The position numbers and the translations under genes are program-made. The notes below the pieces were generated by a model. That model had not been told where the DNA came from, made no database searches, and saw nothing but the letters and a program-made list of their open reading frames with translations. This document shows, one piece after another, positions 827-8,895 of a stretch of 64,000 bases of DNA. The stretch comes from Phenylobacterium sp. SCN 70-31. Lineage in GTDB: Bacteria; Pseudomonadota; Alphaproteobacteria; Caulobacterales; Caulobacteraceae. The DNA lies in NCBI RefSeq assembly GCF_001724605.1, contig NZ_MEEX01000007.1:1-64000 (forward strand), in the 5' to 3' direction. Within the stretch, counting starts at the first letter, position 1, and each line of letters starts with the position of its first letter.

Positions 827-3151
827 TCAGTGCGCCGCCATCGCAGGCGCCTCGCGGGGTAACGGCTCGCCGTAGGTGGTGGTGCGCTGCCGAAGGATCC
901 GCCCGGCGGAGACCGCGGCACGTTCCAGATTCCCTTGACTAGTCTCCTGGCCATGCGCCGCGCCGGCCGCCCTGCTGATGGACTCGTTCATGAGCACCCC
1001 GCCCAGGTCGTTCACGCCGGCGGCCAGGCACGCGGCCGCGCCGTCCACCCCCAGCTTGACCCAGGAAGCCTGGATCGAGCCGATAGCTCCGTGCAGCACG
1101 ATGCGTGAGACCGCGTGCATGAGCACCGTCTCGCGCCAGGTCGGTCCCCGGCGGGCTTGGCCGCGAACGTAGACCGGCGACTGCATGTGTACGAAGGGCA
1201 GGGGGACGAACTCTGTGAATCCGCCGGTGCGCAGCTGCAGTGACCGTATCGCCAGCAGGTGCCGGGCCCAGTGCTTGGGCTGTTCGAGATGGCCGAACAT
1301 GATGGTCGAGGTGGTAGGCAGGCCAACTTCGTGAGCCGCGGCCACCACCGAAAGCCATTCGTCGGTAGTCACCTTGTCGGGGCAAATCTGCGCCCGCACC
1401 TCGTCGTCGAGGATCTCCGCAGCGGTGCCGGGGAGTGAGCCCAGGCCGTCGTCCCGGAGTCGGCGGAGGAAGTCGGATACGGAGACCCCGAGCGTCGCCG
1501 CGCCCTGGCTCACCTCCAGCGGAGAGAAGGCGTGCACGTGCATGTCCGGCTGCGCCCGCTTCACGGCCCGGAGGATGTCGACGTAGGTTTGTCCGGTGTA
1601 GCGCGGGTGGATGCCGCCCTGCAGGCAGACCTCCGTCGCGCCCTTGGCCCAAGCCTCGCTCGTTCGGGATGCGATCTCCTCTAGGTCGAGATCGTAGGGA
1701 CGGTCCCGGGCGCCAGACTTCGAGGACGTCTTGGAGAAGGCGCAGAAGCTGCAGCTGTAGCTGCAGATGTTGGTGTAGTTGATGTTGCGGTTGATGACGT
1801 AGGTGACGACGTCACCCCGGACGCTGCGGCGCAGCTCGTCGGCAGCCGCGACGACCGCGTTGGCCGCGGCCCCGCGGGCGGCGAACAACCGGACAATCGC
1901 TTCGCTGCTCAGGGTCTTGCCCGCGGCGGCGCTCCCAAGATCCCTGTCGAGCTCCAGGTGCGCGACAACTGCCGGCGCCTGGCCAAGCGGCCGGCCCGGC
2001 GTTCCGGGCGCGGGCCCGGCTACGCCCGGGCTCCAGGCGCAGTCGCGCGCCAGGCCTTCGCTGTCGGCGACGCGCACTATGGCTCGCGCCAACGTCGGAT
2101 GCAGCCACCGCCTGGGGTCCTGGACGAACCGCGGGTAGACCGTCAGGCGCTCGACCAGGGCGCGGCCGGCCGCGGTGCAGGCCGTAGCCAGCGCCTCGAT
2201 CTCGGGCCACGGCGCTTCCGGGTTCACGTGGTCGATGGTGACGGGCGAGATTCCCCCCCAGTCGTCCAGACCGGCGGCGATCAGCTCAGCCGCATGGCCT
2301 GGCGAGAGGTTCGGCGGCGCCTGCACGCTGACATCCGCGGGGAGAATTTGACGCGCGACGGCGATGGTCCAGAGTAGTTCCTCCAGGTCCGGCTCCGGAT
2401 GCGCCGCCATGCGGGTGCCCGGCTTGGCGCGGAAATTCTGCACGATCACCTCCTGCAGGTGCCCGTGACGGGCGTGCAGCTCGCGCAGGGCGACGAGGGA
2501 CTCGATGCGTTCGTCGCGGTTCTCGCCGATGCCGATCAGGAGGCCGCTCGTGAACGGTATCGCGGCTCGGCCGGCTGCGTCGATCGACGCGAGCCGGACG
2601 GCCGGATGCTTGTCGGGAGAGCCGAAGTGTGGACCGCCCCGCGCGGACAGTCGCTCCGACACACTCTCCAGCATCAGACCCATGGAGCCGGAGACTGCGC
2701 GCAGGCGCTTGTAGTCATCCTGCGTAAGCACGCCGGCGTTGATGTGCGGGATGAGCCCGGTCTCCACCAGCACGCGGCCGGCGACGTGCTCGAGATAGTC
2801 GACAGTCGTCGCGAACCCCAGCCTGTCCAAGGCCCGCCGCGCGGCGGCATAGCGCAGCTCGGGCTTGTCCCCGAGAGTGAACAGGGCCTCCTTGCAGCCG
2901 GCTGCAGAGCCTTGCCGTGCTATCTCGATAATCTCGTCGGGAGCAAGGAACGCGGCGCCGACGCCCCGGGGCGCCTTGGCGAAGGTGCAGTAGCCACAGA
3001 CGTCACGGCAGAGCTGGGTAAGCGGAATGAAGACTTTGCGCGAGTAGGTCATGCGCTCAGGACCGCGCGCATCGCGGATCCTGCGGCCCTCCGCCAGCAG
3101 TTCGGACAGGGGCGCGGACAATAGCCGGTCGCGCAGGGCAGGGTCAGTCAT
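827..3151 (-). CDS. fbiC: FO synthase, bifunctional CofG-CofH (FbiC)
   Basis: This enzyme makes the deazaflavin FO from 5-amino-6-ribitylaminouracil and tyrosine, the first committed step of coenzyme F420 synthesis. The 774-residue protein has two radical-SAM halves: a CofG half with CRDVCGYC (Cys48, Cys52, Cys55) and a CofH half with CSYSCSFC at roughly residues 460-470, both of the CX3CX2C type. The order CofG then CofH is that of actinobacterial FbiC. The start ATG 3151 was chosen because it overlaps the cofC stop by 8 bases; the longer open frame to 3304 would run inside cofC. It is the last gene of the fno-cofE/cofD/cofC/fbiC operon. Confidence 0.95.
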   Translation of the reverse strand: MTDPALRDRLLSAPLSELLAEGRRIRDARGPERMTYSRKVFIPLTQLCRDVCGYCTFAKAPRGVGAAFLAPDEIIEIARQGSAAGCKEALFTLGDKPELRYAAARRALDRLGFATTVDYLEHVAGRVLVETGLIPHINAGVLTQDDYKRLRAVSGSMGLMLESVSERLSARGGPHFGSPDKHPAVRLASIDAAGRAAIPFTSGLLIGIGENRDERIESLVALRELHARHGHLQEVIVQNFRAKPGTRMAAHPEPDLEELLWTIAVARQILPADVSVQAPPNLSPGHAAELIAAGLDDWGGISPVTIDHVNPEAPWPEIEALATACTAAGRALVERLTVYPRFVQDPRRWLHPTLARAIVRVADSEGLARDCAWSPGVAGPAPGTPGRPLGQAPAVVAHLELDRDLGSAAAGKTLSSEAIVRLFAARGAAANAVVAAADELRRSVRGDVVTYVINRNINYTNICSYSCSFCAFSKTSSKSGARDRPYDLDLEEIASRTSEAWAKGATEVCLQGGIHPRYTGQTYVDILRAVKRAQPDMHVHAFSPLEVSQGAATLGVSVSDFLRRLRDDGLGSLPGTAAEILDDEVRAQICPDKVTTDEWLSVVAAAHEVGLPTTSTIMFGHLEQPKHWARHLLAIRSLQLRTGGFTEFVPLPFVHMQSPVYVRGQARRGPTWRETVLMHAVSRIVLHGAIGSIQASWVKLGVDGAAACLAAGVNDLGGVLMNESISRAAGAAHGQETSQGNLERAAVSAGRILRQRTTTYGEPLPREAPAMAAH

Positions 3152-3806
3152 GGGAAGGCTTTCGTGGAGCAAGGAGAGACCGTGCGACCGTTGCAGTACA
3201 CCCGTGCGGGGCCGAGGCAACGACGAGGTCGAGATCCCCAGGGTGGTCGACATCGAAGCCCAGGCTGCCCGCGTGGGTGACGTGCAGATTGAAGCCGCCG
3301 GCATGGGCGGCAGCCTGGTGCCGCTGGAAGCTGTTCGGCCCGAACGCCAAGGGGAAGGGCAGATCGGCGGGGTGCACGACCGCTGCGGTCCCGCCGTCGA
3401 GGTCGGCGGGGGCTAGAACGATCTTGGGCTCGCCCGAGGCGAGCGCCAGCAATCGTTCGACGTCGTGCGCTGCGGCCAGCGGTAGGTCTCCGGGAAGGAA
3501 TGCGATCAGCTCGTTTCCATGTCGCGCCGTCAGTCGAGCGCGAGCCATCTCGAAGGCGCCGTTGAGATCGGAGGGAGCCGGTTCGAGGATGGCGGACGCG
3601 CCGGCGCGTTCCGCGGTACACGCGATGTCAGGGCTCTGCGTGACCACATGGAGGGTCCGCACCGAGCTGCAGCGGGAAAGGGCTTGCAGCATGTCGACGA
3701 GCATTGCCTGGACGAGGCCCTCGCGATCGCGCCCGTTGAGTCTGTCGGCGCACCGCGACTTGGCTGCGGTGCCGCCCCGCACGGCGATGACCACGTGAGC
3801 GTTCAT
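3144..3806 (-). CDS. cofC: 2-phospho-L-lactate (or PEP/3PG) guanylyltransferase CofC/FbiD
   Basis: This 220-residue nucleotidyltransferase activates a three-carbon phosphoacid with GTP to give the guanylated donor used by CofD. Visible family features are the N-terminal VIAVRGGTAAKSR loop, the FLPGDLPLA motif, the DGGTAAVV strand, FGPNSFQRH, and the C-terminal FDVDHPGDLDLV. Whether it uses 2-phospholactate, phosphoenolpyruvate or 3-phosphoglycerate cannot be read from the sequence by eye. It overlaps cofD by 4 bases and fbiC by 8 bases, so the three are translationally coupled. Confidence 0.9.
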   Translation of the reverse strand: MNAHVVIAVRGGTAAKSRCADRLNGRDREGLVQAMLVDMLQALSRCSSVRTLHVVTQSPDIACTAERAGASAILEPAPSDLNGAFEMARARLTARHGNELIAFLPGDLPLAAAHDVERLLALASGEPKIVLAPADLDGGTAAVVHPADLPFPLAFGPNSFQRHQAAAHAGGFNLHVTHAGSLGFDVDHPGDLDLVVASAPHGCTATVARSLLAPRKPSHD

Positions 3807-4762
3807 CGTTCCGCTCTGCGCTTCTGCGCCAACGCCTCGGCGAACGCCAAGCTCGCCTGGGCGACCCGGAGCCGGTCCTCGTCTGAGTTGAGCAAGTTCG
3901 GGATAGCGAGGGTCGCGACGTGGAGGGCCTCCGCAGCCTCAGAGTCTTCGGGGTCGACGACGAGACCGTCGAGCAGGCCGCGATAGTGTTCGGCTATCGC
4001 CGTGACGCCCGGTTCGAGGCCCATCTCGACCATGAGCTTCGCTGTCGGGCCCTTCACGGCGCGGCCGCCGATGATGGGCGAGATCGCGACGATCGGCGCG
4101 TCCAGGTCCTCCAATGCGCCTCGCACCCCTGGGATGGCCAAGATGGGATCGATGCTCAGGTAGGGGTTCGATGGGCAGAGGATCACCGTCGCAAGGTCGT
4201 CGCGGGCCAGGGCGGCCTCGAAGCCGGGCGAGGGCTTGGCCGCCGCGGCGCCTTCGAACCGAATTCCGTTCGCCACGGGGCGGCACTGGTCTCGAACGAA
4301 ATAGTGCTGGAAGGAAAGTTCGCCGTCGTCGGTCTGCACGATCGTCGCCACTGGGTCGTCAGACATCGGGATGATCGCGTGATCAATTCCAAGCGCCCGT
4401 GTCAGGGCGGCGGTGACTGTCGACAGGGCCTGGCCTTCCGAGAGGCGTCGGGTGCGCTCGACGTGCATCGCGAGGTCCTGATCACCGAGCTGGAACCAGT
4501 CCTCACCTCCCAGCCGCCGCAAGGAGGCCATGAACGCCCAGGTCTCGCCAGCGATTCCCCAGCCACGCTCCCGGTCCGAAAGCCCAGCGAGCGTATAGGC
4601 GACCGTGTCTATGTCGGGCGAGACGTGCAGCCCGAGGTGGACGAAGTCGTCCCCGGTGTTGACGACGATCGAAAGGTCGCCCGGAGCGATCGCCCGCGCG
4701 AGGCCGGCGGCGAGCTTGGCGCCGCCGACTCCGCCACAGAGGGCGAGCACATGGCGGCTCAT
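3803..4762 (-). CDS. cofD: 2-phospho-L-lactate transferase CofD/FbiA
   Basis: It transfers the phospholactyl-type group from the CofC product to FO, giving F420-0 or its dehydro form. The 319-residue protein starts with the glycine-rich LCGGVGGAKLAAGLA loop and has NTGDDF at about residues 35-40, the DPVATIVQT segment and the conserved LCPSNPYLSIDPIL motif near residue 195. Length and motif order fit CofD/FbiA. The start overlaps the upstream fno-cofE stop by 4 bases (ATGA) and the stop overlaps the cofC start. Confidence 0.95.
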   Translation of the reverse strand: MSRHVLALCGGVGGAKLAAGLARAIAPGDLSIVVNTGDDFVHLGLHVSPDIDTVAYTLAGLSDRERGWGIAGETWAFMASLRRLGGEDWFQLGDQDLAMHVERTRRLSEGQALSTVTAALTRALGIDHAIIPMSDDPVATIVQTDDGELSFQHYFVRDQCRPVANGIRFEGAAAAKPSPGFEAALARDDLATVILCPSNPYLSIDPILAIPGVRGALEDLDAPIVAISPIIGGRAVKGPTAKLMVEMGLEPGVTAIAEHYRGLLDGLVVDPEDSEAAEALHVATLAIPNLLNSDEDRLRVAQASLAFAEALAQKRRAER

Positions 4763-6168
4763 CGGAACAGATCCTGTTCCAGGGGCCTCAGCAGTTCGGA
4801 AACGCCCGTCTCGTCATCCGCCTCATAGGTGGCCCCGCGAACAATCGAAACCGGCGTCCCCTCCGCCGCCTCTCCAATGACAAGGGACGCCGCCGCTGCG
4901 ATCTCGTCGGCCACGGCCACCACGGTGGCCTTCAGTTCGCGACCGAAGAGGTCGACCTCGCCGCGGCGATCCCGAAGGGGCTTCATCCCCGCAACGCCGA
5001 TGGCGGTTCCCGTGGTGCCCATGCGCCAGGCGCGGCCAACGCTGTCGCTGACGATCACCGCGATCCGCGCCCCGGAAGACCTTTGCAGCGCTTCCCGGAG
5101 CCGGCGCGCGCTGGCGTCGGGGTCCTCGGGCCACAGCAACACCGAGCCCTCGCCGACATTCGAGGCGTCTATCCCGGCATTCGCCAGCACGTGACCCGTG
5201 CGATGCCGGGAAATCACCAGCCCAGGCGCGATCCTCATGATCTCCTGCGACTCGGAGACGATCAGCTCGACAAGGGGAGGCTCCTTGAGCGATCTGGCGG
5301 CAATGTCGTTCGCCTCGGCCCCGGGAGAGACGTCGATCAGCCTGACAGCGCGGCCTTCCACCTTTGAGACCACCTTCTGCGCAACGACGACGACGTCGCC
5401 ATCCTGCAGCCGCTCCCCCGCCGCTCCCAGGGCAATTTCGATAGCGCTCGCCAGATCATCGTCCTTGGCAAACAGGGGCAGCCCGGCCAGCGCCGTCACC
5501 TGTAGGCTTGCGGCCGACCGCGACTTGCCGGTGATGCGAACGCCGGCTTGGCCCAGCTTGTAGCGGCGGTTCAGCTGGATCAGGACGGACGTCAGCGCTT
5601 CTGTCGCCGCGGAATTCGCCAGCGGCCCGATGTGCCAACTGGTCAGGCCCAGGTCGCTGAGGATCGTGCGGACCGTCTCGACCGCTTCGCTCTCGTCGCC
5701 GGCCACCAGGACGTCGCCGTCCACGGCTCCTCCCGAGCCGAGCTTCTCCGCCCCGATATTCTGGAGCGCCGAAACCACCTTCACGCCAGGTCCGAGCAAC
5801 TGGGCCGCTTCGACAGCCGCGCAGCCGGCCGGGGGCAACTGGACCAGACCGACCTTGGGCGGGCGCAGGGGCACGGTGGCGTCGACCACCACCTTACCCT
5901 GAACCTCTTCGAGGACTTGCTTCAGTGTGTCGGCATGAGCTGCATAAGGCACGGTGAGGAAGACAATATCGGCGCGTGCTGCGGCCTCCCGCAGTCCGCT
6001 ACCGGTGACTTGGGCGTCCGGATGGTCACGCCGCAGTTCGGCCGCAAAGGCTTGGGCCTTGGCAGGATCGCGCGAGCCGATGTGGACTTCACGCCCGATC
6101 GCGGTGAGTCGCTTCGCCAGCGCTCCCCCCAGTGCGCCGGTGCCGCCCAGAATGGCCAGACTTTGCAA
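4759..6168 (-). CDS. Fusion: NADPH-dependent F420 reductase (Fno) + F420-0:gamma-glutamyl ligase (CofE)
   Basis: Residues 1 to about 215 form an Fno/NpdG-type Rossmann domain: LAILGGTGALGGALAKRL at the N-terminus, SRDPAKA as the NADP-phosphate site, FLTVPYAAHAD, and VSALQNIGAEKL. Residues about 221-469 form CofE: LPLFAKDDDLA, GDVVVVAQKVVSKVEGR, ASNVGEGSVLLWPEDPD and SDSVGRAWRMGTTGTAIGVAG. One polypeptide would therefore both add glutamates to F420-0 and reduce F420 with NADPH (or oxidise F420H2). There is no C-terminal nitroreductase domain as in mycobacterial FbiB. It is the first gene of the F420 operon and starts next to a divergent promoter region shared with the acyl-CoA ligase at 6368. 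Confidence 0.92.
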   Translation of the reverse strand: MQSLAILGGTGALGGALAKRLTAIGREVHIGSRDPAKAQAFAAELRRDHPDAQVTGSGLREAAARADIVFLTVPYAAHADTLKQVLEEVQGKVVVDATVPLRPPKVGLVQLPPAGCAAVEAAQLLGPGVKVVSALQNIGAEKLGSGGAVDGDVLVAGDESEAVETVRTILSDLGLTSWHIGPLANSAATEALTSVLIQLNRRYKLGQAGVRITGKSRSAASLQVTALAGLPLFAKDDDLASAIEIALGAAGERLQDGDVVVVAQKVVSKVEGRAVRLIDVSPGAEANDIAARSLKEPPLVELIVSESQEIMRIAPGLVISRHRTGHVLANAGIDASNVGEGSVLLWPEDPDASARRLREALQRSSGARIAVIVSDSVGRAWRMGTTGTAIGVAGMKPLRDRRGEVDLFGRELKATVVAVADEIAAAASLVIGEAAEGTPVSIVRGATYEADDETGVSELLRPLEQDLFR

Positions 6169-6224: not shown

Positions 6225-6336
6225 GCCAACATAATAACTAATCAACCAATATGTTGTCGCGGCCGCTAGGCGCGGGCCATATCCTCGCGACCCCACTGTT
6301 CCGGCAACATATTGTCTTTTCCACCAACAAATGGTC
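6225..6336. promoter_or_regulatory. Divergent promoter region with candidate TetR-type operators
   Basis: This stretch between the F420 operon and the ligase/LLM operon contains CAATATGTTG at 6247-6256 and its exact reverse complement CAACATATTG at 6305-6314. Further CCAACATA (6227-6234) and CCAACAAAT (6324-6332) half-sites flank them. The 12-base core AACCAATATGTT (6244-6255) differs by one base from a site at 16150-16161. The related half-sites at 12868, 12891 and 13750 suggest one shared regulator. The TetR protein at 21519 is the nearest candidate; this link is an inference. Confidence 0.5.
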
Positions 6337-6367
6337 ATGTCGCACGGCGTCATCTGCAGGAGGCGGA

Positions 6368-8050
6368 GTGGACGGTCAGGCAACGATCGAGAACGCACCA
6401 CAGCTGTTGCGCCACCTGTGCGCCCGCTTTGGCGATCGAGCCGTGGCGATCGGCGGCGGCCGAGAGCTGACCTACCAGCAGGTGGAGGCCGAGTCCGGCA
6501 GGCTGGCCCGGGGCCTTTTGCTGGCGGGCGTGGGCAAGGGAACACGCATCGGGCTGCTGATGCCCAACTCGCCGGATTGGCTTGTCTGCTGGATGGCGGC
6601 GCTCCGCATCGGGGCGGTGCTGATCGGCGTGAGCACCTTCCTCCGCCCGAGGGAACTGGCCTGGCTTCTCAAGTTCGCCGACATCGACACGCTGCTGATG
6701 AAGGACGCCTACCTGCGGCACAACTACGTGGAGGAACTGGAACTGGCCTTACCCTCTCTCGCGACCGGTGAGGCGTCGCGGCCGCTCACCGTGCCGGAAG
6801 CGCCCTTCCTGCGCTCGGTATGGATCTGGGGCGGGGGACGCCCCGCATGGGCGCGGGGGACCGGGCCGGAGCTTCTGGCGCGGGGCGACGAGCTCGACCG
6901 CGAGTTCCTGGCCGAAGCGGAGTCGCAGGTGGCGCCGGCAGACCTTGGCGTCCTGATTTTCACCTCTGGAACCACCGCACATCCCAAGGGCGTGGCCCAC
7001 ACCCAGGGCGCGATCGTACGACGGCTGTTTGAGCTTGAACCCTTCAGCAGCCGGGCTGACGGGGAGCGGGTCGGCATTCTGACGCCCCTGTTCTGGATTG
7101 GGGGGCTCTACAGCGCCCTGAGCACCATGCTTGCGGGCGGCACGCTGGTGTTTCCCGATCGGCCAGATCCGGCCTACATGATCGACTTCATAACCCGCCA
7201 GAAACTGGACTACCTGACCGGCTGGGCGGGGCAGCTGAATGCCATCCGGCAACATCAGGACTTCACGCCCGCGGTCTTCGCAGGCTTGAAGTCGAGCGGC
7301 GTTCAGGCACGCTCCGGCCTGCTTCCGTCTGGGTCCGCCGCACCTCCGGAACGAACCCCCAGCATGCTCGGCATGACCGAGACCTTTGGCCCGCACAGCG
7401 GTGAGCACAGGGGGACCTTGTTGTCCGAAGATCGGCAGGGCTCCTTCGGACGCGGCATAGGCGCGTTCGAGCGCAAGGTCGTCGATCCGCAGACGGGCAT
7501 CGCCCTGGCTCCGGGCACGTCCGGCGAGCTGCTGATCCGCGGTCCCCTGATGATGGAGGGCTACTACAAGCGCGAGCGTCACGAGGTGTTCGAGCCGGAC
7601 GGATTCTTCCGCACCGGGGACCGCTGCCGCATCCTCCAGGATGGTCACCTCTTCTTCGAGGGCCGGCTCGGCGAAATGATCAAGACCAGCGGGGCAAACG
7701 TGGCGCCCGAAGAGGTGGAGCAAGTGCTCCTCGCCCAGCCGGAGGTGCGGGAGGCCTATGTCATTGGCAGGCCAGACCCCGCCATGGGCCAGGTGGTGGT
7801 CGCCCTTGTGGTTCCCGAAGGGGAGGTTGCGCCCGACGAGGCCGTGCTGCGCGCGCGGCTTGGTCGGGAGCTGTCCGCCTACAAGGTGCCCAAGCAGATC
7901 ACCTTCATCCGAGCCGAGGATGTGCCGCGCAGCACCGCCAGCGGCAAGGTCCAGAAAGTCAGGCTGTTGGAGCGGTTCGATCTTTCGGGGCGCACGCCAG
8001 CAGGCGCCCCCGTGGCGTCAACCTCAGAAATGGAAGCGGACGCACAATGA
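6368..8050 (+). CDS. AMP-forming acyl-CoA ligase (FadD-like)
   Basis: A 560-residue class I adenylate-forming enzyme that would activate a carboxylic acid to its CoA thioester. Visible motifs are the P-loop FTSGTTAHPKGVAHT, the GMTETFGPHSGE motif, GFFRTGDRC, KTSGANVAPEEVEQVL and the C-terminal catalytic-lysine motif STASGKVQK. I chose GTG 6368 because AGGAGG lies at 6358-6363 and because homology to the related ligase at 26871 begins there; the open frame extends back to 6251. It overlaps the LLM oxidoreductase by 4 bases, so the two are probably made together. The acid substrate is unknown. Confidence 0.88.
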   Translation: MDGQATIENAPQLLRHLCARFGDRAVAIGGGRELTYQQVEAESGRLARGLLLAGVGKGTRIGLLMPNSPDWLVCWMAALRIGAVLIGVSTFLRPRELAWLLKFADIDTLLMKDAYLRHNYVEELELALPSLATGEASRPLTVPEAPFLRSVWIWGGGRPAWARGTGPELLARGDELDREFLAEAESQVAPADLGVLIFTSGTTAHPKGVAHTQGAIVRRLFELEPFSSRADGERVGILTPLFWIGGLYSALSTMLAGGTLVFPDRPDPAYMIDFITRQKLDYLTGWAGQLNAIRQHQDFTPAVFAGLKSSGVQARSGLLPSGSAAPPERTPSMLGMTETFGPHSGEHRGTLLSEDRQGSFGRGIGAFERKVVDPQTGIALAPGTSGELLIRGPLMMEGYYKRERHEVFEPDGFFRTGDRCRILQDGHLFFEGRLGEMIKTSGANVAPEEVEQVLLAQPEVREAYVIGRPDPAMGQVVVALVVPEGEVAPDEAVLRARLGRELSAYKVPKQITFIRAEDVPRSTASGKVQKVRLLERFDLSGRTPAGAPVASTSEMEADAQ

Positions 8051-8895
8051 AGATCGGCATGCAGCTTCGGGTCGGACCTCGCAACTGGGTTTCCTACGCC
8101 CAGGCCGCTGAACAGGCCGGCTTCGAGTCGATCTGGATGCCTGAGCACCTGATCATGCCCGTCAAAATGTCGGGCAAGCCCGGTTCGGCGCACGAAGGCG
8201 AGCCCCCCATCTCTGGCGAAACACCCGCCTGGGACCCCTGGCTGCAAATCGCCTACCTAGCCGGTCAGACAAGCACCATCCGGTTCGGCACCAACGTGTT
8301 CAACATCGGACTGCGACACCCGTTCATAACGGCCCGCGCCCTGATGACGGCGGATCTGATCTCGAATGGTCGGGTCGAATTCGGGATCGGCGCGAGCTGG
8401 CTCGCGGAGGAGTGGCAGGCCATGGAGCTCCCGTTCGAGACCCGCGGGCGGCGCGTGAACGAGTCGATCCGCATTATCCAGCAGCTCTTTACGCAGGATG
8501 TCGTCGAGCATCAGGGCGAGTTCTTCAATTTCCAACCGGTCAGCTTCATGCCCAAGCCGGTGCAGGCGCCTTGGCCACCGTTCCACATCGGAGGGGATTC
8601 CATTCCGGCCATGCGCCGGGCGGTTCAGCTGGGCGATGGCTGGATGCCCATGGCGCAGACGCCGGACACCCTCGCCGGCAGCCTCGCCAAGCTCGCGCAG
8701 CTGCGAGAGGAGGCCGGTCGCGAGCGGCCCCTGCAGGTGACGATCTACAACATCGAGCCTGTGAGCGCTGAAGACCTCCAGCGGTATCGCGACATGGGCG
8801 TTGACCGGGTGCTCGTCGTGCCGCAGGGCCACCCCCGCGACGGAGTCGACTGGATCCGCCGGTTCGGGGACCAGGTACTCCCGGCCTTCGCCTAG
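8047..8895 (+). CDS. LLM-class F420-dependent (luciferase-like) oxidoreductase
   Basis: A 282-residue TIM-barrel protein of the bacterial luciferase-like superfamily. Family signatures include the start MKIGMQLRVGPRNWVSYAQ, AGFESIWMPEHL, the RFGTNVFNI strand, RVEFGIGASWLAEEW (typical of the F420-using branch), and PPFHIGGDSIPAMRRAVQLG with GDGWMP. The adjacent F420 synthesis operon supports F420H2 rather than FMN as cofactor, but sequence alone does not prove this. It is the only obvious F420-dependent catabolic enzyme in the window. It is translationally coupled (ATGA) to the ligase upstream and convergent with the CoA-transferase, only 3 bases away. Confidence 0.88.
   Translation: MKIGMQLRVGPRNWVSYAQAAEQAGFESIWMPEHLIMPVKMSGKPGSAHEGEPPISGETPAWDPWLQIAYLAGQTSTIRFGTNVFNIGLRHPFITARALMTADLISNGRVEFGIGASWLAEEWQAMELPFETRGRRVNESIRIIQQLFTQDVVEHQGEFFNFQPVSFMPKPVQAPWPPFHIGGDSIPAMRRAVQLGDGWMPMAQTPDTLAGSLAKLAQLREEAGRERPLQVTIYNIEPVSAEDLQRYRDMGVDRVLVVPQGHPRDGVDWIRRFGDQVLPAFA

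What the first reader, a model, noticed from the sequence alone, without database searches (positions are those of the whole stretch)
4759..6168. Fno-CofE fusion joins F420 reduction and glutamylation in one protein
The protein carries an Fno-type NADPH domain (LAILGGTGALGGALAKRL) followed by a complete CofE ligase. Cofactor making and cofactor reduction are normally separate genes; joining them implies co-location of F420 maturation and redox cycling. It heads the operon.
Basis: partly seen in the sequence, partly recalled or inferred. Interest (0 to 1): 0.72.

Follow-up and report, generated by a model that had tools for sequence, protein, structure and literature searches.

The report
Fused F420 reductase and glutamate ligase
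One bacterial protein combines the enzyme that finishes the rare redox cofactor F420 with the enzyme that charges it with electrons; the fusion is real and recurs in related bacteria, but it looks like a simple joining of two neighbouring genes rather than a new mechanism.

Summary
Window 4759-6168 (minus strand) is one uninterrupted 469-codon frame. Residues 4-212 pass the curated cut-off for NADPH-dependent F420 reductase (npdG/Fno) and residues 223-469 that for F420-0:glutamate ligase (CofE). It heads an operon fno-cofE / cofD / cofC / fbiC. It is not an assembly error: among the loci held I found 11 distinct stop-free fusions, nine in one group (eight of them in one family, three genera) and two in other lineages. 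In most relatives that have both genes, they lie side by side in this order (42 of 49 genomes, fused ones included), so the fusion joins neighbours. In its own group it is mixed with unfused kin, one of which keeps a short Fno stub before CofE. AlphaFold gives two confident domains and a soft linker at residues 211-220. In each of 11 fused genomes the fused copy is the only strong npdG match. It is probably a working bifunctional enzyme with largely independent domains; nothing here supports substrate channelling. New domain architecture, known chemistry.

The parts
4759..6168 (-). fno-cofE fusion gene, 469 aa, TTG start with AGGAG 10 nt upstream
   Evidence: upstream sequence
5527..6168 (-). 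Fno/NpdG domain, residues 1-214 (T10, S32, R33, K37 of the NADPH site kept)
   Evidence: TIGR01915; alignment to 5n2i and 1jax; Foldseek
5506..5526 (-). linker, residues 215-221 (model block 211-220 mean pLDDT 69)
4762..5505 (-). CofE domain, residues 222-469 (D334, D375, G378, R379, R461 kept)
   Evidence: TIGR01916; alignment to 7uld/2phn; Foldseek
3803..4762 (-). cofD, 4-base overlap with the fusion gene
   Evidence: TIGR01819 292.1 bits
3144..3806 (-). cofC; the marker residue for 3-phosphoglycerate use is Gly, so PEP or 2-phospholactate type
   Evidence: TIGR03552 130.4 bits; PMC8764529 (passages)
827..3304 (-). fbiC (CofG-CofH fusion); ORF open to 3304, real start probably near 3154 (inferred)
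   Evidence: NF006687 1125.3 bits
6169..6367 (.). divergent intergenic region: inverted repeat with arms 6247-6259 and 6302-6314 (possible operator) and one promoter-like match on the minus strand, 6260-6231
   Evidence: the 10-mer count is reached in 13 of 100 shuffles with one mismatch allowed, so weak
6251..8050 (+). divergent acyl-CoA ligase; a GTG start at 6368 behind AGGAGG is more likely than 6251 (inferred)
   Evidence: sequence
8047..8895 (+). F420-type luciferase-like oxidoreductase, TIGR03619, a likely user of the cofactor
   Evidence: 218.5 bits against cut-off 166.9

Best explanation
The gene makes one bifunctional protein. Its C-terminal CofE domain adds glutamates to F420-0 with GTP, the last step of F420 synthesis; its N-terminal Fno domain moves hydride from NADPH to F420. 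It arose by loss of the stop and start between two genes that already lay next to each other in the operon, probably once in the ancestor of this group of F420 operons, and separately in at least two other lineages. The domains are joined by a short flexible linker and most likely work independently; what the fusion gives is equal and simultaneous production of the cell's only CofE and its only recognised npdG-type reductase. Shown here: single frame, domain membership, homologous fusions, operon, single copies in the own genome, most binding residues. Inferred: both activities, independence of the domains, direction F420 to F420H2, single origin in the group.
For: Domain scores above curated cut-offs. 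Of 128 loci that hold both genes in this order, 18 are stop-free, 86 are in the same frame with at least one stop and 24 in another frame (loci include duplicates and were largely picked for similarity over both halves). Adjacent in this order in 42 of 49 genomes with both matches (hand count). Model mean pLDDT 95 with a linker block of 69; each half matches its own solved structures (7uld/2phn TM 0.91; 5n2i 0.88-0.89, 1jax 0.91). dN/dS (NG86) below 1 in both halves in all 36 pairs of nine fusions; closest pair Fno 0.18, CofE 0.26 (many dS values near or above 1). Own genome: no other CofE and only a 68-residue weak match on the Fno side at E 0.001. In 11 fused genomes the fused copy is the only npdG match at E 1e-10, except G009, which has one more at 50 bits. 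Fgd (TIGR03554) above cut-off in 0 of 15 genomes; none of the 14 control genomes passes it either, so there is no positive control.
Against: No activity was measured. The npdG margin is narrow (153.3 against 149.8), and G009's fused half is just under the cut-off (146.5). In the group, fused halves score 146-170 bits; three stand-alone npdG of the genus score 186-199, but the separate one of G120 scores 165, so this follows lineage rather than fusion. The start codon is TTG. A single origin in the group is not what the tree alone says: the nine fused CofE sequences are not one clade (AU p 0.011; group named after a first tree had been seen), so either repeated fusion or one fusion with repeated break-up fits. 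The shared linker start ITG[KR]x[KR] is weak support for one origin, since unfused Fno also end in ITG.
Confidence: 0.78

Rival explanations
1. The Fno domain is a second F420-binding site that holds the cofactor near CofE and lets it add a longer glutamate tail, as the second domain of mycobacterial FbiB is said to do.
For: PMC10861534 (passage) states that FbiB needs both of its domains to add multiple glutamates, while single-domain CofE makes predominantly F420-2. Fno binds the same molecule, and the two domains are tethered by a short linker.
Against: CofE is unfused in most relatives. The linker is variable, and unfused sequences are mixed into the group. I know of no tail lengths for these bacteria and made no separate search for them.
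Confidence: 0.1
2. Fusion gives direct hand-over (channelling) of new F420 from CofE to Fno, so that the cofactor leaves already reduced; this is the first reader's implied meaning.
For: Physical linkage in one chain; adjacency of the genes in many Pseudomonadota and Anaerolineae loci.
Against: Fno must reduce F420 again and again, so a one-time hand-over gains little (inference). Linker soft and variable. Unfused kin in one genus. For the FbiC fusion, diffusion between domains is reported (PMC8498797, passage).
Confidence: 0.06
3. The Fno half also (or mainly) reduces dehydro-F420-0, taking the place of a missing FbiE, so that the protein is a functional counterpart of FbiB.
For: CofC lacks the 3-phosphoglycerate marker residue. 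No FbiE-type match in the own genome at E 0.001, a level at which 11 of 14 control genomes show one. Of 65 CofE-positive genomes none passes the FbiE cut-off, 2 have a clear match beside cofE and 11 a weaker one. If PEP is the precursor, a reductase is missing. FbiB is also a CofE fused to a reductase (PMC8498797).
Against: Fno is known for hydride transfer to the deazaflavin ring, not to an enol side chain. The two genomes with a clear FbiE-type gene also have npdG next to cofE. 2-phospholactate as precursor would need no reductase. Fno seems needed for F420 reduction itself, since no Fgd passes cut-off.
Confidence: 0.04
4. The frame is an annotation or sequencing artefact, or the product is cut or re-initiated into two proteins.
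For: TTG start; a GTG lies near the CofE start.
Against: Eleven distinct homologous stop-free fusions from different assemblies; no ribosome-binding sequence seen before that GTG (read by eye).
Confidence: 0.02

Closest known systems
Fno / NpdG, NADPH:F420 oxidoreductase (1JAX/1JAY, 5N2I; TIGR01915)
   Same: Same fold, NADPH-binding loop and F420 family; passes the equivalog cut-off
   Different: Stand-alone protein in the described cases I saw; here the N-terminal half of a larger protein
CofE, F420-0:gamma-glutamyl ligase (2PHN, 7ULD; TIGR01916)
   Same: Full-length ligase domain, most of the checked metal- and F420-site residues kept
   Different: Preceded by an Fno domain; A. fulgidus CofE is a single-domain protein
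FbiB (CofE fused to an FMN-dependent nitroreductase domain)
   Same: CofE fused to a redox domain in the same pathway
   Different: Other redox fold, opposite order (FbiB: ligase first), no nitroreductase domain here
FbiC (CofG-CofH fusion)
   Same: Fusion of two F420 genes; one is present in this operon
   Different: Joins two synthesis activities; here synthesis is joined to use

Membership tests
Fno/NpdG | Score above the curated TIGR01915 cut-off | tested here: met
   153.3 against 149.8 bits, (narrow margin)
Fno/NpdG | NADPH loop GGTGxxG and the SR(x)3[KR] 2'-phosphate site | tested here: met
   T10, S32, R33, K37 align to T28, S50, R51, R55 of 5n2i (counted by hand); R55S as a coenzyme-specificity mutant from PMC5817062 (passage), roles of the other three recalled
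Fno/NpdG | NADPH:F420 hydride transfer | not testable with these tools
   needs an assay
CofE | Score above the curated TIGR01916 cut-off, full length | tested here: met
   292.5 against 180.65 bits, model 2-244 of 244
CofE | F420-contact residues named for A. fulgidus CofE: R234, G153-C155, F92 | tested here: inconclusive
   Counted by hand on the alignment, names: R234 = R461, G153 = G378 and R154 = R379 kept; C155 is A380; F92 is G316 (G or N in the five fusions aligned)
CofE | GTP-dependent glutamate addition | not testable with these tools
   needs an assay
FbiB | C-terminal nitroreductase (FbiE) domain | tested here: not met
   no such domain in the protein; TIGR03553 0 matches at E 0.001 in the genome
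3PG-F420 pathway | Ser/Thr at CofC position 162 (M. rhizoxinica numbering) | tested here: not met
   Gly in the window; 78 Gly, 6 Asn, 4 not aligned, 0 Ser/Thr among 88 loci, duplicates included

The most novel reading that the evidence does not exclude
Fno-CofE is an independent counterpart of FbiB: a second F420-binding redox domain tethered to CofE that changes how the tail is built (longer or more uniform tails) and, in bacteria without a clear FbiE, might even supply the missing reduction of dehydro-F420-0.
Probability: 0.1. Interest if true: 0.68.

Novelty: new variant of a known kind. Interest (0 to 1): 0.4.

Why it matters
F420 synthesis already has two well-known fusions, FbiC and FbiB. 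This adds a third, mainly in Alphaproteobacteria, that joins synthesis to use. It gives natural constructs for F420 production and recycling in one protein, and a within-genus comparison (fused, split, Fno lost) for asking what enzyme fusion is good for. It also exposes an open point: these bacteria have a PEP/2-phospholactate-type CofC but mostly no clear FbiE.

Tried and rejected
Assembly error or frameshift at the junction: rejected by 11 distinct homologous fusions. G333 looked fused from its open-frame length, but the DNA has a TGA between the genes: rejected; it was the only such candidate I noticed, and a fusion split into two matches in a genome whose locus was not fetched could have been missed. 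3PG-F420 route: not supported. FbiE in the own genome: none. Fgd as a second F420 reductase: none above cut-off in 15 genomes, without a positive control; other F420 reductases (Adf, other luciferase-like ones) were not tested. Plasmid records: 76 match and 28 cover at least 80% of the query; 15 of the 30 rows listed carry both a cofE and an npdG annotation, the rest one, neither or no annotation, and none was checked at the DNA level. Phylum draw: 4 of 398 genomes matched at E 1e-40, only the own one over the whole length. Rfam and tRNA scans of the window: nothing. Whether the dimers of the two domains fit together could not be modelled (single chains only). Papers: the Ney 2017 and Kumar 2017 papers are not held, so a mention of the fusion there is not excluded. 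Searches for a published Fno-CofE fusion: (listings only) and all eight 'fusion' places in the 2021 review: none found. Searches looked for active-site papers.

Full report
What is there. The minus-strand frame at 4759-6168 encodes 469 residues without a stop. Its first half is an Fno/NpdG domain and its second half a complete CofE, both above NCBI's curated cut-offs: 153.3 against 149.8 bits and 292.5 against 180.65; Pfam agrees. The start is TTG with AGGAG ten bases upstream. cofD overlaps the stop by four bases; cofC and fbiC follow, a complete F420 operon with the fusion gene first. A MerR-type regulator gene lies behind fbiC (386-808). Divergently there is an acyl-CoA ligase and an F420-type luciferase-like oxidoreductase (TIGR03619, 218.5 bits), and beyond them acyl-CoA genes.

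Is it real? In the genus, 12 of 101 genomes have a match at E 1e-10 and four of these are stop-free over the whole length: the own one and G009, G063, G108 at 73, 69 and 65% identity. In the family draw 20 of 299 match at E 1e-40 and seven are stop-free over the whole length: three of the same genus, and G875, G980, G1029 and G1061 of two other genera; most genomes of genus and family have no match at all, so the operon is patchy. In the class draw 78 of 385 match at E 1e-10; the own genome and G325 are stop-free over the whole length. Of the best 80 loci of the GTDB contig scan (401 relatives found, 80 kept; its patterns sit in the Fno half), eight are stop-free. In the class of the genome titled Lambdaproteobacteria 15 of 52 match at E 1e-40 and one is seen fused, the genome the search was centred on. 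After removing duplicates by hand the 18 are 11 distinct proteins: L001, L003, L006, L007, L050, L052, L053, L133, L134 in the main group, L022 in another alphaproteobacterial family, and L067. The 128 also hold duplicates among the unfused, and many were picked because they resemble both halves at once, so these are counts of loci, not rates among species. The name Caulobacteraceae rests on record titles (Caulobacterales, Phenylobacterium, Caulobacter) of contigs that match the genus and family genomes; L053 is titled Hydrogenophilaceae.

How it arose. By hand count, 58 genomes have a CofE match at E 1e-36 or better; 42 have Fno and CofE side by side in this order (two of them fused), 2 side by side in the other order, 5 apart, and 9 show CofE only (4 candidates per genome were scored there, so a missing Fno may be a limit of the search). 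The pair also occurs in Beta- and Gammaproteobacteria and Anaerolineae loci, mostly with fewer than 100 bases between the matched parts. So the fusion is a small step from a conserved gene pair. In the careful CofE tree the main group (13 rows) is strongly supported (100/99), and L022 and L067 lie outside it. Inside the group four unfused sequences are mixed with the nine fused ones; holding the nine together is rejected (AU p 0.011), with the warning that I chose the group after a first tree. One of the four, G123, starts with MAGVAIVGGTGAS directly before its CofE, the start of an Fno domain whose rest is gone; another, G120, has the two genes overlapping as TAATG. The other two, G025 and G088, have CofE without an Fno remnant and an npdG 9-10 kb away. 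The nine fusions share the linker start ITG[KR]x[KR], weak evidence because unfused Fno also end in ITG. I read this as one fusion with repeated break-up, but repeated fusion is not excluded; a deletion like G123's could also start from an unfused pair.

Does it work? T10, S32, R33 and K37 match the NADPH site of T. fusca Fno (R55S from a passage of PMC5817062, the rest recalled). In CofE, D334, D375, G378, R379 and R461 match A. fulgidus residues (my count); R234 and G153-C155 are named as F420 contacts in PMC10861534 (passages), the metal role of the two aspartates is recalled; C155 and F92 are not kept. dN/dS is below 1 in both halves for all 36 pairs of nine fusions, though many dS values are near or above 1. 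The AlphaFold model has mean pLDDT 95, pTM 0.77, and 69 in the block 211-220. Foldseek finds CofE and Fno structures for the two halves. The own genome has no second CofE. Each of 15 genomes searched has one strong npdG match; in the 11 fused ones it is the fused copy, and G009 has one further match at 50 bits. The fused halves of the group score 146-170 bits, stand-alone ones of G025, G088 and G123 186-199, the separate one of G120 165. G025, G088 and G123, whose CofE has no intact Fno partner beside it, each carry one other npdG. No Fgd passes cut-off in the same 15, nor in the 14 controls. The fused protein is therefore the only predicted source of F420H2 of these two kinds; other F420 reductases were not tested.

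What it means. The simplest reading is a two-headed enzyme with independent heads. The review of 2021 reports that the fused domains of FbiC appear to work independently, by diffusion (PMC8498797; I read passages and sections 27 and 32). Unfused kin in one genus and a variable linker speak against a tight functional need. The more interesting reading is an analogy to FbiB, in which, according to PMC10861534 (passage), both domains are needed for multiple glutamate additions. A side result fits it loosely: CofC lacks the 3PG marker in all 84 of 88 loci where the position aligned (marker from PMC8764529, passages and outline), yet none of 65 CofE-positive genomes passes the FbiE model's cut-off (249.55 bits). 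Two have a clear match (146 and 148 bits) directly beside cofE, 11 have weaker nitroreductase matches at E 1e-10, and 52 have none at that level. The 65 were the own genome, 20 others of the genus and family, and 44 of the 57 other CofE-positive genomes (13 left out). How the side chain is made in these bacteria is open.

Literature. None of the listings shows a paper on this fusion by title, and the review's eight 'fusion' places concern FbiC, FbiB and fusion events in general. The library lacks most subscription journals and two obvious papers, so 'not in print' is limited to these searches.

Noticed in passing
window 6247-6259 and 6302-6314: Inverted repeat (CAATATGTTGTCG / CGGCAACATATTG) in the divergent region between the F420 operon and the acyl-CoA ligase; perhaps an operator. 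The 10-mer count is reached in 13 of 100 shuffles with one mismatch allowed, so weak.
   Followed up: partly
window 3144-3806 and 88 related loci: CofC has Gly at the position that is Ser/Thr in 3-phosphoglycerate users, and 63 of 65 CofE-positive genomes searched lack a clear FbiE-type match; the source of the reduced side chain is unclear.
   Followed up: partly
G369:C10:9714-10277 and G449:C132:10769-11332 (L137, L138): FbiE-type gene (148 and 146 bits, below the family cut-off) directly beside cofE in one alphaproteobacterial genus, the only clear matches among 65 genomes.
   Followed up: no
L008 (G123:C48), start of CofE: CofE that begins with a short Fno stub (MAGVAIVGGTGAS): a scar of domain loss.
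   Followed up: yes
L053 (JACAEE010000161.1): Contig titled Hydrogenophilaceae bacterium carries a fusion that groups inside the Caulobacteraceae set; mislabelled bin or gene transfer.
   Followed up: no
window 6251-34780: Long run of acyl-CoA ligases, acyl-CoA dehydrogenases, CoA transferase, SDR and similar genes next to an F420-type oxidoreductase; looks like a degradation cluster that may use F420. Genes beyond 15 kb were read from ORF translations by eye only.
   Followed up: partly
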